A DNA stretch of 64,000 bases, from assembly GCF_038404985.1 (NCBI RefSeq), contig NZ_JBBKBA010000001.1, positions 524,001 through 588,000 on the forward strand, written 5' to 3'. Origin of the DNA: Ferrovibrio sp. MS7 (GTDB lineage Bacteria; Pseudomonadota; Alphaproteobacteria; Ferrovibrionales; Ferrovibrionaceae). The notes under the pieces were generated by a model. It was not told the DNA's origin and did not search any database. It was given only the letters and a program-made list of their open reading frames with translations. The translations under genes were made by a program, and so were the position numbers. Below, piece after piece: positions 29,079 through 36,814 of the stretch. How positions within the stretch are numbered: the first letter of the stretch is position 1; each line of letters opens with the position of its first letter.

Positions 29079-30419
29079 ATGGTGCCGATGCAAAGCCTGC
29101 TGATGGAACTCGACCGCATCAAGGACATGACCTTCACCGGCCGTGTGGTCTCGATTCAGGGGCTGCTGGTCGAGGTGGCCGGCGTCGAGCGCTATCTCTC
29201 CATCGGCTCGCGCGTCCGCCTGCTGGCGCGCGACAACCGCATGGTCGAGGGCGAGGTGGTCGGCTTCCGCCAGAACCGCGCCCTGCTGATGCCCTATGGC
29301 TCGCTGGAAGGCGTTGGCCTCGGCACCCGCGCCGTGGTGGCCGAGGAACAGCCGGTGGTCTATCCGGATGTGAGCTGGCTTGGCCGCGTCATCGACGGCC
29401 AGGGCCGGCCACTGGATGGCGGCCCGCCGCTGGTCAACGGCCTGCGGCCCTATCCTTTGCGCAACAATCCACCGCCGGCCAATTCGCGCCGCCGCGTCGG
29501 CCCCAAGATCGATCTCGGCATCCGCTCGATCAACACCTTCATCTCCTGCTGCCGTGGCCAGCGCATGGGCATCTTCGCCGGCTCCGGCGTCGGTAAATCC
29601 GTGCTGCTTTCGATGATGGCGCGCTACACCGAAGCCGATGTCAACGTCGTCGGCCTGATCGGCGAACGCGGCCGCGAAGTGCAGGAATTCATCGAGGACG
29701 ATCTCGGCCCTGCCGGCCTTGCCCGCACCGTGGTGGTGGTGGCGACCTCGGATGAAAGCGCCCTGGTGCGCCGCCAGGCCGCCTACATGACGCTGACGCT
29801 GGCCGAATTCTTCCGCGACCTCGGCCTGCAGGTGCTGTGCCTGATGGATTCCGTCACCCGCTTCGCCATGGCACAGCGCGAGATCGGCCTTTCGGGCGGC
29901 GAGCCGCCAACCACCAAGGGCTATCCGCCGACGGCTTTCGCTGAATTGCCGCGCCTGCTGGAACGCGCCGGCCCCGGCACCGGCGAGGGCAGCATCACCG
30001 GATTGTTCACCGTGCTGGTGGATGGCGACGACCACAACGAACCCATCGCCGACGCGGTGCGCGGTATTCTCGATGGCCATATCGTGATGGAGCGCCGCAT
30101 CGCAGAACGCGGCCGCTATCCCGCGATCAACATCCTGCGCTCGATTTCGCGCACCATGCCGGGCTGCAACTCGGCCGCCGAGAATGAACTGGTGAACCGC
30201 GCGCGGCAGATGATGGCGGCCTACGAGGACATGGCGGAACTGATCCGGCTCGGCGCCTACCGCATGGGTTCCGATCCGCGCGTCGATGAAGCAATCCGCT
30301 ACCAGCCGGCGCTGGAGGCCTTCCTCAAGCAGCTCAAGACCGAGCGTGCCGATCTGGCCTCCTGCTATATGGGTCTGGCCGATATCTTTGCCGCCGGCGA
30401 TGCCCAGGCGATGCAGTAG
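29079..30419 (+). CDS. fliI: Flagellum-specific ATPase FliI
   Basis: 446 residues. FliI is the F1-beta-like ATPase that energises flagellar type III export. The P-loop is [12 protein letters not shown] (about 167-178), followed by [13 protein letters not shown] and [17 protein letters not shown]. The start is ambiguous: ATG 29079 lies two bases after GGAG, GTG 29082 five bases and ATG 29088 eleven bases, so the N-terminus may be one to three residues shorter. It is coupled with fliJ 13 bases downstream and divergent from ctrA. Confidence 0.96.
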
Positions 30420-30432
30420 GAGACGCTAGCGT

Positions 30433-30864
30433 ATGCGCGGGCTTGATGGACTGATCCGGCTGTGGAAATGGCGCCTCGACGAGAAGCGCCGCGTCGTCGT
30501 CGACCTGGAAGTGCTGCGCGCCGAACTGGAACGCCAGATGACGGCGCTGGATGACGAACTGGAACATGAGCGCCGCGTTGCCGCGCAATCGCTGGAAGGC
30601 GGCATGGCCTTCACGCCGTATCGCCGCGTCAACCGCGAGAAGATGGACCGCCTGCTGGCCTCGCGCGAGGAAGTGCAGGACAAGATCGCCGCCGCCCAGG
30701 AAGAAGTGAACGACGCCTTCCGTGAGCTTAAGAAATACGAGTTGGTGAAGGAAAACCGCCTGGCGCAGAAGGCCCGCGAACAGGCCGCCGCCGAGCAGGC
30801 GGAGCTTGACGAAGCCGGCCTGCAGGGCTTCCTGCGCCAGAACCAGCCCGAGCCCGGGCTTTAA
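30433..30864 (+). CDS. fliJ: Flagellar export chaperone FliJ
   Basis: 143 residues, almost wholly charged helix with heptad character from about 15 to 125, matching the coiled-coil FliJ that inserts into the FliI hexamer. Primary sequence is poorly conserved in this family, so the call leans on fliI lying directly upstream and on the length. A short G/C hairpin (30845-30860) overlaps the stop codon and is followed by only TTAAT, so termination there is doubtful. Confidence 0.85.
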   Translation: MRGLDGLIRLWKWRLDEKRRVVVDLEVLRAELERQMTALDDELEHERRVAAQSLEGGMAFTPYRRVNREKMDRLLASREEVQDKIAAAQEEVNDAFRELKKYELVKENRLAQKAREQAAAEQAELDEAGLQGFLRQNQPEPGL

Positions 30865-30898: not shown

Positions 30899-30941
30899 TT
30901 GCACAGGATTGGCTGACGCGCTATTGTACCGATAGGTACAA
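30899..30941 (+). promoter_or_regulatory. Promoter with overlapping TetR-type operator
   Basis: TTGCAC (30899-30904) and TATTGT (30922-30927) are 17 bases apart, a good sigma-70 layout. The perfect inverted repeat TTGTACC-GATA-GGTACAA (30924-30941) covers the -10 and the start region. The operon it heads encodes a TetR repressor as its second gene, so autorepression through this site is the likely logic. Its ACCGATAGGT centre resembles operators of several TetR regulators. Confidence 0.7.
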
Positions 30942-30959: not shown

Positions 30960-31448
30960 ATGACCGCCCCGCAAAGCCGCCCGCCGCTGCCGCCCTTCAC
31001 CGCCGAAACCGCGGCCCAGAAGGCGCGCATGGCAGAAGATGCCTGGAACAGCCGCGATGCCGCCCGCGTGGCGCTGGCCTATACGGAAGATAGCTGGTGG
31101 CGCAACCGCGCCGAATTTATTCAAGGCCGCGACGCGATCCGCGCCTTCCTGGAGCGCAAATGGCAGCGCGAACTGGATTACCGCCTGATCAAACAGGTCT
31201 GGGCCTTCACCGGCAACCGCATAGCGGCGCGCTTCGCCTATGAATGGCATGACGATAGCGGCCAGTGGTATCGCAGCCATGGCAACGAGCAATGGGAATT
31301 CGATGAGCATGGCCTGATGCGCCGCCGCGAGGCCAGCATCAACGACACCCGCATCACGGCGGCCGAGCGCAAATTCCTATGGCCGCGCGGCAGCAACAAC
31401 GACCGCCGCCCGGACGACTATCCGATCTTGAGTGACCTCGGCCTGTAA
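30960..31448 (+). CDS. DUF1348 family protein (NTF2-like fold)
   Basis: 162 residues. The DUF1348 hallmarks are all visible: [56 protein letters not shown] and [20 protein letters not shown]2-like proteins form a cone-shaped pocket for small molecules, and no activity is established for this subfamily as far as I know. It is the first gene after the TetR operator, and the repressor follows after 97 bases, so expression is probably inducible. Confidence 0.9.
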
Positions 31449-31454
31449 TCAGAG

Positions 31455-31529
31455 AGATGCCCGGGTCTGCGCCCGGGCATGACGATTCTACTATATTTGT
31501 CGTCACCCCCGGGCTTGACCCGGGGGTCT
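31455..31529. repeat. Pair of palindromic intergenic repeats
   Basis: Two palindromes with 9-bp arms (31457-31465/31472-31480 and 31505-31513/31519-31527) lie between the DUF1348 gene and tetR, inside the presumed operon. The first ends in ATGAC and the second begins with GTCAC, so they are inverted relative to each other. The hairpins could reduce read-through from the first gene. Confidence 0.85.
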
Positions 31530-31545
31530 CTATGGGAGGTATCTA

Positions 31546-32115
31546 ATGCCCGCCGCCATCATCACCCGCGAGGCAGCTCTGGCCCGCCTTGCCGAATGTT
31601 TCCGCATGCTTGGCTATGACGGCGCCTCTTTGAGCGCGCTGACGGATGCCAGCGGCCTAGGCAAGGGCAGCCTGTATAACTACTTTCCCGGCGGCAAGGA
31701 GCAGATGGCGGCGGAAGTGCTGGCGCATATTGATGCCTGGTTCGAGGCTGAAGTTTACACGCCACTGCGCCAGACCAAGAATCCCCGCGCTGCCATCGCG
31801 GCGATGTTCCAGGCGACGGAAGACTATTTCCATGGCGGCGGCCGCGTCTGCCTGGTTGGCGCCTTTGCGCTGGATGCGACTCGCGACCGCTTTGCCGCTG
31901 CCGTGCATGACTATTTCGCCCGCTGGATAACGGCTTTGGCCAAGGCGCTGAAACGCGGCGGCGCGGCTGAGCCACGCCAACGGGCGGAAGGCATCGTCGC
32001 CGGCATCCAGGGGGCGCTGACACTCGCCCGCGCGCTGGATGAGCCGGCGCTGTTCCGGCGCCAGCTTCACGAAATGCGGAAGCAGATCGATCAAGCCTTG
32101 CCTGACGCCGGGTAA
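31546..32115 (+). CDS. TetR family transcriptional repressor
   Basis: 189 residues. The N-terminal HTH (about 5-52) includes GASLSALTDASGLGKGSLYN and YFPGGKEQM, the style of TetR regulators that control electrophile or drug-response genes. The C-terminal ligand domain is of the YxaF/LmrA-like type. The ATG follows GGAGG by about six bases. It likely binds the inverted repeat at 30924-30941 and so controls its own operon of DUF1348, GST and HCCA isomerase genes. The inducing ligand is unknown. Confidence 0.92.
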   Translation: MPAAIITREAALARLAECFRMLGYDGASLSALTDASGLGKGSLYNYFPGGKEQMAAEVLAHIDAWFEAEVYTPLRQTKNPRAAIAAMFQATEDYFHGGGRVCLVGAFALDATRDRFAAAVHDYFARWITALAKALKRGGAAEPRQRAEGIVAGIQGALTLARALDEPALFRRQLHEMRKQIDQALPDAG

Positions 32116-32154: not shown

Positions 32155-33063
32155 ATGGCGGACCTGATCCTGCATCATTACGGCACCTCGCCGTTTTCGG
32201 AGAAAGTGCGCATCGCCTTCGGCATCAAGCGCCTGGCCTGGCGCTCGGTGACCATTCCAGTGATCATGCCGAAGCCGGAGCTGATGCCGCTGACCGGCGG
32301 CTACCGCAAGACGCCGGTGCTGCAGATCGGCGCCGATATCTACTGCGACACCCAGGTGATCCTGCGCGAACTTGATCGCCGCCAGCCCGAACCGCCGCTT
32401 GGCACCGGCAGCATCGCCGAGGGCTTCGCCTTCTGGGCCGATCACCCGTTGTTCTCTGCTGCCGTAGCCACCGCGTTTGGCACCATGGGCGAGCACCTGC
32501 CCGATGCCTTTTTCGCCGACCGCGCCGCTTTCTCTGGCCGCGCCATGGACCGCACCAAGCTCAAAATGCAGTCTGCCGTGATGCAGGGGCCGCTGCGCGC
32601 CCATCTCGGCTGGGCCGAGCAATCTTTAAGCGATGGCCGCCGCTTCCTGCTTGGCGATGCCCCGAGCCTCGCTGACCTGGCGATATATCATCCGGTGTGG
32701 TTCGTGCGCGACCGCGCCAAAAGCCAGGCCCTGTCTGATTACACTGCCTTGAATGCCTGGGCCGACCGCATGGCGGCCTTCGGCCATGGCGAGAAGAGCG
32801 AGATGACCGCCACAGAAGCCTTGAGCGTTGCGCGCGAAGCGGAACCGGCGGCGGAAACCCGCGGCGTGGCCGCCAACAGCCTGGGCCTGCAAGCCGGGCA
32901 GCCGGTCAGCGTCACGCCAGATGACACTGGCCGCGACCCGACCATCGGCGCATTGGTGGCGCTGGACGCGCAGACCATCGTGATCCGCCGCGAAGCGCCG
33001 GAATGCGGCGCCGTGCATGTACATTTCCCCCGCGCCGGCTTTATTCTCGTGCCGGCAAAATAG
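32155..33063 (+). CDS. Glutathione S-transferase-like protein with extra C-terminal domain
   Basis: 302 residues. The N-terminal thioredoxin-like domain (about 1-78) opens with LILHHYGTSPFSEKVRIAFG and has the cis-Pro in YRKTPVLQIG. A helical GST domain follows to about 210. An additional beta-rich segment (about 225-302) is unusual for a plain GST. The Ser in SPFSEK may be catalytic. It is 39 bases after tetR and 18 bases before the HCCA isomerase gene, both glutathione-linked, pointing to detoxification of an electrophile or aromatic compound. Confidence 0.85.
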   Translation: MADLILHHYGTSPFSEKVRIAFGIKRLAWRSVTIPVIMPKPELMPLTGGYRKTPVLQIGADIYCDTQVILRELDRRQPEPPLGTGSIAEGFAFWADHPLFSAAVATAFGTMGEHLPDAFFADRAAFSGRAMDRTKLKMQSAVMQGPLRAHLGWAEQSLSDGRRFLLGDAPSLADLAIYHPVWFVRDRAKSQALSDYTALNAWADRMAAFGHGEKSEMTATEALSVAREAEPAAETRGVAANSLGLQAGQPVSVTPDDTGRDPTIGALVALDAQTIVIRREAPECGAVHVHFPRAGFILVPAK

Positions 33064-33081: not shown

Positions 33082-33687
33082 ATGGCCCGCCTGGAAGTGT
33101 TCTACGACGTCTCGAGTCCCTGGACCTATCTCTGCTTCCACAATATCCAGCCGATGGCCGAGCGCCTGGGCGAACAGATCGAGTGGAAGCCGATCCTGGT
33201 CGGCGGCGTGTTCAACGCGGTGAACCCTTCGGTTTATGCCAGCCGCGAGAATCCGGTGCCGGCGAAAGCGAATTACACCCAGAAGGACCTGCAGGACTGG
33301 GCCCGCCATAGCGGCATCAAAATAAAGTTTCCGCCCAGCGTGTTTCCGGTGAACAGCGTGAAGGCGATGCGCGGCTGCATCTGGGCCAATGAACAAGGCA
33401 AGCAGACAGCATTGGCGCGGGCCTGTTTCGAACTCTACTGGGGCGAGGACAAGGATATCAGCCAGGACGCGGTGCTGGCCGAGGCCTGCAAGCGCGCCGG
33501 CGTTGATCCGGCTGGTTTCGCGCAAGCGGTGAACGACCCCGAGATCAAATCGGAACTCAAGGCCAATACCGACGAGGTAATCTCGCGCGGCGGCTTCGGC
33601 TCGCCGACCATCTTCGTCGATGGCCACGACATGTATTTCGGCAATGACCGCCTGGCGCTGATCGAGGCGGCGCTGACAAGACCCTGA
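33082..33687 (+). CDS. 2-hydroxychromene-2-carboxylate isomerase family (DsbA-like, GSH-dependent)
   Basis: 201 residues. The fold is the kappa-GST/DsbA type. FYDVSSPWTYL near residues 7-17 supplies the Ser that activates glutathione, and GSPTIFVDG near residue 173 is the cis-Pro loop. Family members isomerise 2-hydroxychromene-2-carboxylate in naphthalene breakdown or act as general GSH-dependent isomerases. No ring-cleavage genes are in the window, so the natural substrate is open. It is the last gene of the TetR operon. Confidence 0.88.
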   Translation: MARLEVFYDVSSPWTYLCFHNIQPMAERLGEQIEWKPILVGGVFNAVNPSVYASRENPVPAKANYTQKDLQDWARHSGIKIKFPPSVFPVNSVKAMRGCIWANEQGKQTALARACFELYWGEDKDISQDAVLAEACKRAGVDPAGFAQAVNDPEIKSELKANTDEVISRGGFGSPTIFVDGHDMYFGNDRLALIEAALTRP

Positions 33688-36193: not shown

Positions 36194-36814
36194 TTACGGC
36201 GTTTCCAGCGGGTGCGCCTTGAACGCCGGCAGCGCCTCGCAGGCAGTCGCCAGCGCTTCCAGATTTGGATAGACGCCGGGCGGCAGCAATTCCGGCAGCA
36301 TGACGCGCAGGAAGCTGACGGTGACGCCGGCGGTGACATCGGCCATGGAGAAATGCTCGCCCATCAGCCAGGGATGCGGCTGCACGGCTTCCAGCGCCTT
36401 GAGGCCGCCAGTGGCCTGGGAAAGCAGCAACTGCCGCCACGGCTCATGCACTTTCTCGGCCGGGCGGCGGCGCACTTCGTAGATCGCGCTGACCGCCTTA
36501 TCCAGCACGCCGCTGCCCCAGGCCATCAGGCGCAGGCAGTCGCGGCGCGGCTTGCCATGCGGCGGCACCAGGGTTTTCGGCCCCGCCAACTCCATCAGGT
36601 AATCCAGGATCGCGGCGGATTCGATCAGCGTCTCACTGGCCGAGATCTGCAAGGCCGGCACGCGGCCGACCGGATTGATGCTGAGGCCGCGCTGCGGGTC
36701 GGCGGTGACCGAGAGATATTCGCGTTCGTGCGGGATATCGAGCAGGGTGAGCGCGATGGCTACCCGTCGGGTATAGGGGGAGAGATTGCGGCCGATCAGT
36801 TTCATGGTCGTCAT
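36194..36814 (-). CDS. Glutathione S-transferase
   Basis: 206 residues. The thioredoxin-like domain (about 1-80) begins with IGRNLSPYTRRVAIAL, where SPYTRR holds the likely catalytic Ser, and has the cis-Pro in GRVPAL followed by ESAAILDYL. The helical C-terminal domain contains HPWLMGEHFSMADV, the GST N-capping region. It lies 48 bases downstream of leuB in the same direction and could be a late member of that transcript, but no functional link is evident. Confidence 0.9.
   Translation of the reverse strand: MTTMKLIGRNLSPYTRRVAIALTLLDIPHEREYLSVTADPQRGLSINPVGRVPALQISASETLIESAAILDYLMELAGPKTLVPPHGKPRRDCLRLMAWGSGVLDKAVSAIYEVRRRPAEKVHEPWRQLLLSQATGGLKALEAVQPHPWLMGEHFSMADVTAGVTVSFLRVMLPELLPPGVYPNLEALATACEALPAFKAHPLETP

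What the first reader, a model, noticed from the sequence alone, without database searches (positions are those of the whole stretch)
30899..30941. Perfect TetR-type operator lying on the promoter of a GSH-linked detoxification operon
The 18-bp inverted repeat TTGTACC-GATA-GGTACAA overlaps the -10 of a 17-base-spaced promoter, and tetR is the second gene of the operon it heads. The other genes encode a DUF1348 protein, a GST with an extra C-terminal domain and a 2-hydroxychromene-2-carboxylate isomerase-type enzyme. This gives DUF1348, a family with no known role, a testable inducible setting.
Basis: partly seen in the sequence, partly recalled or inferred. Interest (0 to 1): 0.5.

Follow-up and report, generated by a model that had tools for sequence, protein, structure and literature searches.

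The report
Conserved repressor switch for DUF1348 gene
A short palindromic DNA site in front of a gene of unknown function, DUF1348, recurs at the same place in many bacteria that carry a repressor gene beside it, so it is very probably that repressor's binding site and gives a practical way to ask what DUF1348 does.

Summary
The 18-bp palindrome TTGTACC-GATA-GGTACAA (30924-30941) is real and lies on a weak promoter 18 bp before DUF1348. A palindrome alone proves little: the window holds 18 perfect repeats of this geometry, this one included. Conservation does. It stands directly upstream of DUF1348 in 9 of 9 genus members that hold the gene, one copy each. Across 93 non-redundant loci where DUF1348 sits beside an orthologous TetR, 77 have it with at most 3 mismatches, against 3 of 54 DUF1348 loci without that TetR (all three have another TetR next door) and 3 of 1762 control stretches. 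Of the 80 closest TetR relatives kept from named genomes, 77 are preceded by DUF1348. A second, weaker site exactly 19 bp away occurs in 31 of 93; the window has one. So the site is the likely operator of an autoregulated DUF1348-TetR pair. The glutathione part is weaker: GST and isomerase joined the operon only in Ferrovibrio. A fungal DUF1348 protein, 71cR, raised cercosporin resistance in Neurospora. Cys102 is invariant in 96 of 96 TetRs, which suggests, without showing, a thiol-based sensor. Ordinary regulatory logic, well supported, with unknown ligand and enzyme.

The parts
30899..30904 (+). putative -35 (TTGCAC)
   Evidence: TTGC kept 24-25 bp before the operator in 8 of 9 genus members (by eye); L129 has TTGACA at -20 instead
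30922..30927 (+). putative -10 (TATTGT), overlapping the left operator arm
   Evidence: TATTGT in 5 and CATTGT in 4 of 9 genus members (by eye)
30924..30941 (.). TetR operator TTGTACC-GATA-GGTACAA
   Evidence: unique in genome at up to 2 mismatches; conserved upstream of DUF1348:
30960..31448 (+). DUF1348 protein, 162 aa, NTF2/ketosteroid-isomerase fold
   Evidence: PF07080 E 3.5e-64; PDB 2imj E 4.5e-69; AF2 pLDDT 95.1; 2imj Z 28.4, ketosteroid isomerases Z about 15
31456..31532 (.). REP-like repeat pair in the DUF1348-tetR spacer (approximate limits, by eye)
   Evidence: spacer sequences; core CCCGGGCTTGACCCGGG at 56 places in the genome within 1 mismatch, 34 of them exact
31546..32115 (+). 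TetR-family repressor, LmrA/YxaF-like C-terminal domain, 189 aa; predicted recognition helix about 40-46, conserved Cys102
   Evidence: PF00440 E 7.5e-8, PF21993 E 3.2e-10; AF2 pLDDT 88.2; C102 in 96 of 96 orthologues
32155..33063 (+). glutathione S-transferase-like protein, 302 aa, with C-terminal extension also present in PDB 3ic8 and 4kf9
   Evidence: PF13417 E 1.2e-15; 4kf9 E 1.9e-63 and 3ic8 E 2.2e-63, both over residues 1-297
33082..33687 (+). DsbA-fold protein of the 2-hydroxychromene-2-carboxylate isomerase / kappa-GST kind, 201 aa
   Evidence: PF01323 E 3e-44; 3fz5 E 1.2e-21, 2imd E 5.1e-17, kappa GST 1yzx E 3.5e-14; no NCBIfam hit at E 0.001

Best explanation
The palindrome is the operator of the TetR protein encoded by the second gene. 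A TetR dimer binds it, blocks RNA polymerase at the promoter that heads DUF1348-tetR(-GST-isomerase), and so represses its own operon (inferred from conserved anatomy; not shown by binding). A small molecule, or chemical modification of the invariant Cys102, would release TetR and switch on DUF1348 (the thiol-switch step is inferred, about 0.35). The evolutionarily stable unit is DUF1348 + TetR + operator; in this genome no second target site was found. In Ferrovibrio the unit has gained a GST and an HCCA-isomerase-like gene, which fits a detoxification role in that genus. DUF1348 most likely acts as a small intracellular NTF2-fold enzyme on a hydrophobic, perhaps quinone- or polyketide-like compound (inferred).
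For: Site unique in the genome at up to 2 mismatches. In 18 genomes of the family, 10 have the site at up to 1 mismatch, one each, and all 10 lie just upstream of DUF1348; in 9 of these (the genus) it is exact. Flanks diverge while the arms stay identical. 93 non-redundant DUF1348 loci with an orthologous TetR (E<1e-30) beside them: 77 with a site of up to 3 mismatches in about 165 bp; 54 without that TetR: 3; reversed-pattern control 1 of 93 and 1 of 54; random stretches of the linked loci 3 of 1762, of the unlinked 0 of 1006. The three exceptions (L086, L094, L107) each have another TetR_N protein within 700 bp (Pfam-checked). 77 of the 80 best TetR relatives kept are preceded by DUF1348. 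A second site (up to 5 mismatches) exactly 19 bp off in 31 of 93; other distances: 3 at 20 bp, 7 at 9-10 bp, 6 single ones. TetR residue 39, just before the predicted recognition helix, is Ser in 12 TetRs, whose half-sites are mostly AAACC/AGACC, and Gly in 84, mostly GTACC. Exact TTGAC within 45 bp before the leftmost operator in 44 of 77 loci with a good site, against 41 of 1514 control stretches, clustered 20 and 8 bp before it. C102 in 96 of 96. The TetR model matches NemR (4yze) and CifR among other TetRs. DUF1348 phenotype in fungi.
Against: No binding or expression data. The Gly39/Ser39 correlation is one evolutionary event (single origin), and L133/L002, sister to the Ser39 group, has Gly39 with a mixed operator. 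16 of 93 TetR-linked loci miss the 3-mismatch cut: 11 are Ser39 members with changed outer bases, L133 and L182 keep ACCN4GGT, L206 is a mis-called gene start whose site has 1 mismatch, L160 and L210 have 4 mismatches. The set of 80 was chosen by closeness of TetR. Of 75 non-redundant DUF1348 loci read (family and class samples), 54 lack this TetR, so DUF1348 does not need it. Three loci carry the palindrome with a different TetR, so the site may not be private to this TetR. Residue-level alignment of Cys102 with NemR Cys106 or AltR Cys100 was not obtained, and YxaF (1sgm) has no Cys there. The promoter is weak. The spacer with its REP-like hairpin could uncouple tetR from DUF1348.
Confidence: 0.82

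Rival explanations
1. Same operator logic, other trigger: classical ligand-binding TetR, derepressed by reversible binding of an aromatic or polyketide-like effector in the C-terminal pocket (as LmrA/QdoR-type regulators respond to flavonoids, recalled), with Cys102 merely structural.
For: LmrA/YxaF-like C-terminal domain; best PDB sequence match is YxaF, which has no Cys at that place; many loci come from plant-associated genera such as Rhizobium, Bradyrhizobium and Mesorhizobium (habitat recalled).
Against: C102 is invariant in 96 of 96; thiol-sensing NemR is among the structural neighbours.
Confidence: 0.4
2. The palindrome is a site for a regulator encoded elsewhere, and the adjacent TetR is a passenger.
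For: Three DUF1348 loci carry the palindrome without this TetR type (L086, L094, L107).
Against: Those three have another TetR next door; presence of the site tracks presence of the adjacent TetR (77 of 93 against 3 of 54); operator arms and TetR residue 39 change together, though once.
Confidence: 0.06
3. The palindrome is a chance inverted repeat or part of a transcribed hairpin (RNA element or terminator).
For: Perfect 7-4-7 repeats are frequent in this sequence (18 in the window).
Against: Same sequence and place in 9 of 9 genus members with diverged flanks and far beyond; second sites at exactly 19 bp suggest DNA-bound dimers.
Confidence: 0.02

Closest known systems
E. coli NemR-nemRA (TetR repressor, operator at its own promoter, Cys106 thiol switch)
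   Same: TetR repressor beside the gene it controls, palindromic operator at the promoter, detoxifying partner, conserved Cys in the ligand domain; NemR is among the structural matches; NemR facts from passages of PMC5297802 and PMC13178969
   Different: DUF1348 in place of the NemA reductase; residue-level equivalence of the Cys not obtained; NemR's own Pfam C-terminal family not compared
Pantoea AltR (TetR; thiosulfinate tolerance)
   Same: Inverted repeat overlapping the -10, autoregulation, essential Cys100 (PMC13178969, passages)
   Different: Operator CAATCTAC-N6-GTAGATTG, larger alt cluster; no DUF1348 mentioned in the passages seen
Bacillus YxaF / LmrA
   Same: Best Pfam C-terminal match (PF21993) and best PDB sequence match 1sgm
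   Different: 23% identity by structure alignment, no Cys at the position of C102, other targets (recalled)
Cercospora nicotianae 71cR (fungal DUF1348)
   Same: DUF1348 family; induced under cercosporin toxicity; resistance when expressed in N. crassa (PMC4608573, passages)
   Different: Fungal; disruption mutants not more sensitive; reaction unknown
PDB 2imj, Pseudomonas fluorescens PFL_3262
   Same: Same family, 69% identity over 155 residues, Z 28.4
   Different: Solved structure of a hypothetical protein; no function given in the records seen

Membership tests
TetR family of repressors | TetR_N HTH domain (PF00440) over cut-off | tested here: met
   32.5 bits, cut-off 24
TetR family of repressors | Binds a palindromic operator at its own operon's promoter | not testable with these tools
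   Only conservation evidence
LmrA/YxaF-like TetR sub-family | C-terminal domain PF21993 over cut-off | tested here: met
   40.6 bits, cut-off 27
NemR/AltR-type thiol-sensing TetR | Critical Cys at the NemR Cys106 / AltR Cys100 position | tested here: inconclusive
   A Cys (C102) is present in 96 of 96, but its equivalence to NemR Cys106 was not aligned residue by residue (one search gave no NemR match)
NemR/AltR-type thiol-sensing TetR | Loss of DNA binding on oxidation or alkylation | not testable with these tools
   needs protein
DUF1348 (PF07080) | Pfam match over cut-off, full length | tested here: met
   215 bits, cut-off 22.1, profile 1-129 of 130
Ketosteroid isomerase (enzyme) | Catalytic Tyr/Asp residues and activity | not tested
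   Only the fold was compared
Glutathione S-transferase | GST N- and C-terminal domains over cut-off | tested here: met
   PF13417 58 bits (cut-off 22), PF13410 37.3 bits (cut-off 24.9)
2-hydroxychromene-2-carboxylate isomerase / kappa GST | DsbA-fold domain similar to solved members | tested here: met
2-hydroxychromene-2-carboxylate isomerase / kappa GST | Enzyme activity | not testable with these tools
   needs protein

The most novel reading that the evidence does not exclude
DUF1348-TetR is a widespread, self-contained toxin-response module of Proteobacteria: a thiol-switch repressor (Cys102), often on two operators 19 bp apart, induces a ketosteroid-isomerase-fold enzyme that disarms quinone- or polyketide-type electrophiles or photosensitisers, the same chemistry by which fungal DUF1348 (71cR) protects against cercosporin; Ferrovibrio has extended it with glutathione enzymes.
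Probability: 0.2. Interest if true: 0.7.

Novelty: new member of a known kind. Interest (0 to 1): 0.45.

Why it matters
DUF1348 occurs in bacteria and fungi and, in what was found here, has no assigned reaction. A conserved dedicated repressor with a defined operator means that a reporter screen for what releases TetR would point to DUF1348's substrate class in many species at once. In the literature searches made here (open-access PMC only; listings, with passages read only where cited) no paper on this TetR-DUF1348 pair or this operator was seen; subscription papers were not searched.

Tried and rejected
Significance by palindromicity alone: rejected, 18 perfect 7-4-7 repeats in the window, this one included. 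A wider regulon in this genome: no second site at up to 2 mismatches. Class-wide pattern hits: 60 of 385 genomes have a site at up to 1 mismatch, but by coordinates only 8 of the 60 have it beside DUF1348 (G000, G010, G012, G013, G057, G240, G280, G325); the reversed-pattern control also matches in many genomes (not tallied). Of 4 exact sites outside the genus, 2 are at DUF1348 (G240, G325) and 2 (G184, G142) lie inside a reading frame whose protein I recognise from memory as DapA, with no TetR found nearby. A third operon gene shared across the 80 named loci: none stood out (most frequent neighbour in 5 loci). Novelty of the GST's C-terminal extension: rejected, 3ic8 and 4kf9 align over it. 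Co-variation of TetR residue 39 with the operator as proof of binding: kept only as support, since it is one event. ACCN4GGT as an invariant heart: rejected, strict form in 71 of 93 linked and 4 of 54 unlinked loci. Searching the ligand domain alone for a NemR alignment gave no NemR match. Paper searches for NemR Cys106 and CifR gave mostly unrelated papers; a listing on Ferrovibrio was not used. The repeat finder on the spacer at default settings returned no inverted repeat, though REP-like halves are visible by eye. The alignment script failed part-way and was redone. Ten weak or partial DUF1348 matches were not fetched or counted (G218, G027, G042, G024, G173, G371, G294, G201, G323, G237). 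The HTH profile was built with three of the TetRs it then found, so those and the other five were checked with Pfam (PF00440 over cut-off in 8 of 8).

Full report
What is there. The window comes from a 4.58-Mb genome whose closest named relatives by this TetR are Ferrovibrio MAGs. At 30899-30941 there is TTGCAC, 17 bases, TATTGT, with the palindrome TTGTACC-GATA-GGTACAA at 30924-30941 overlapping the proposed -10 by four bases; DUF1348 starts at 30960. Downstream in the same direction follow a TetR with an LmrA/YxaF-like C-terminal domain, a 302-aa GST and a DsbA-fold protein of the HCCA-isomerase/kappa-GST kind.

Is it more than chance? The shape alone is not: the window has 18 perfect 7-4-7 repeats, this one included. 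The sequence is: it occurs once in the genome at up to 2 mismatches, and in 18 genomes of the family (the order search returned the same 18) 10 have it at up to 1 mismatch, once each, always directly upstream of DUF1348; in the 9 genus members with DUF1348 it is exact, while loop and flanks vary. A further genome of the same species, 72% complete, shows neither DUF1348 nor the site. Two other genera of the family (G001, G002) have DUF1348 without a site at up to 1 mismatch; G001 has the TetR and a diverged site, G002 has no such TetR in the stretch read.

Wider test. In 385 genomes of the class, 75 have a DUF1348 match and 60 have a site at up to 1 mismatch; by coordinates 8 of those 60 have it beside DUF1348, the rest look like background. 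Of 75 non-redundant DUF1348 loci read from the family and class samples, 21 have an orthologous TetR beside them and 54 do not. Pooled and made non-redundant, 77 of 93 TetR-linked DUF1348 loci have a site with at most 3 mismatches against 3 of 54 unlinked; controls: reversed pattern 1 of 93 and 1 of 54, random stretches 3 of 1762 and 0 of 1006. All three unlinked positives have another TetR within 700 bp; in all, 8 of the 54 unlinked loci do (TetR_N confirmed for 8 of 8).

Anatomy of the operator. The commonest heart is ACC-N4-GGT, in strict form in 71 of 93 linked and 4 of 54 unlinked loci. In a group of Rhizobium and relatives the outer bases change from GTACC to AAACC/AGACC, and those TetRs carry Ser39 in place of Gly39 just before the predicted recognition helix (12 of 96). 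L152, a Ser39 member, has one arm of each kind. The tree gives Ser39 a single origin, so this is one coincident change, and the sister L133/L002 has Gly39 with a mixed operator. 35 of 93 loci have a second site of up to 5 mismatches 15-26 bp away, 31 of them exactly 19 bp; the window has one site only. An exact TTGAC lies within 45 bp before the leftmost operator in 44 of the 77 loci with a good site, against 41 of 1514 control stretches, most often 20 or 8 bp before it, so in general the operator lies inside the promoter. In the genus, 8 of 9 have TTGC 24-25 bp before the operator and all have YATTGT over the left arm.

How it most likely works. TetR represses its own operon by occupying the promoter. 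Shown: conserved site, place and linkage. Inferred: binding, repression, induction. The inducer is unknown. Cys102 is invariant in 96 of 96 TetRs; NemR and AltR, TetR repressors of detoxifying genes, use one Cys as their switch (passages of PMC5297802 and PMC13178969), and NemR is among the structural neighbours of the model. This makes an electrophile sensor plausible, but a reversible ligand is about as likely; YxaF has no Cys there, and the equivalence to the NemR and AltR cysteines was not aligned.

The genes. DUF1348 models with pLDDT 95, matches 2imj (Z 28.4) and then ketosteroid isomerases (Z about 15); a shared fold shows no function. W29, N30, W47, L64, K78, E95, W103, R105, G108, E110, W112, G118, N128 and R137 are the same in all 146 sequences aligned. 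The fungal DUF1348 protein 71cR was induced under cercosporin toxicity and gave resistance in N. crassa (11 of 27 transformants tested), though disruption mutants were not more sensitive and the authors had no evidence that it alters cercosporin (passages of PMC4608573); three tobacco lines expressing it had less disease (passages of PMC7075572). GST and isomerase homologues appear in this operon only in the genus, so the GSH link is local.

A complication. In 6 of 9 genus members a REP-like repeat pair sits between DUF1348 and tetR; in the other 3 the genes overlap or abut (by eye). Its core is at 56 places in the genome within 1 mismatch, 34 exact, with no match of the reversed pattern. It may lower tetR, GST and isomerase relative to DUF1348 (inference).

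Verdict. A real, well-conserved site, very probably the operator of a widespread autoregulated DUF1348-TetR pair: known regulatory logic, unknown ligand and unknown enzyme.

Noticed in passing
window 31456-31532, also 28073 and 38054: REP-like repeats (core CCCGGGCTTGACCCGGG); 56 copies within 1 mismatch in the genome, none of the reversed pattern. In the genus they have entered the DUF1348-tetR spacer in 6 of 9 members (by eye).
   Followed up: partly
L148, L153, L161, L176, L178 and others: Two TetR operator-like sites in tandem with a fixed spacing, 19 bp in 31 and 20 bp in 3 of 93 DUF1348-TetR loci.
   Followed up: partly
L086, L094, L107: The same palindrome (1-3 mismatches) stands before DUF1348 genes whose neighbour is a TetR of another kind (L094: 26% identity over 91 residues; PF00440 in all three), suggesting repeated or swapped pairing of DUF1348 with TetR regulators.
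   Followed up: partly
L060, L063, L088, L098, L104: Five more DUF1348 genes without the palindrome also have a TetR_N protein within 700 bp, so DUF1348 is paired with TetRs of several kinds.
   Followed up: no
L017 (G010:C23:135999-136118): A short DUF1348 remnant with an internal stop in a genome that also has an intact copy.
   Followed up: no
window 29079-30864: The operon follows on a flagellar/type III export ATPase-like gene (PF00006 and PF18269) and a FliJ-like gene (below curated cut-offs); L145 and L146 show the same left neighbour sequence by eye.
   Followed up: partly
window 36194-36814 (-): A second GST (PF13417 E 5.3e-16) about 2.5 kb beyond the operon, on the other strand.
   Followed up: no
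L211 (record titled Mycobacterium sp. KBS0706): Its TetR groups with Inquilinus limosus in the tree (support 100/99); the record's label may be a misidentification.
   Followed up: no
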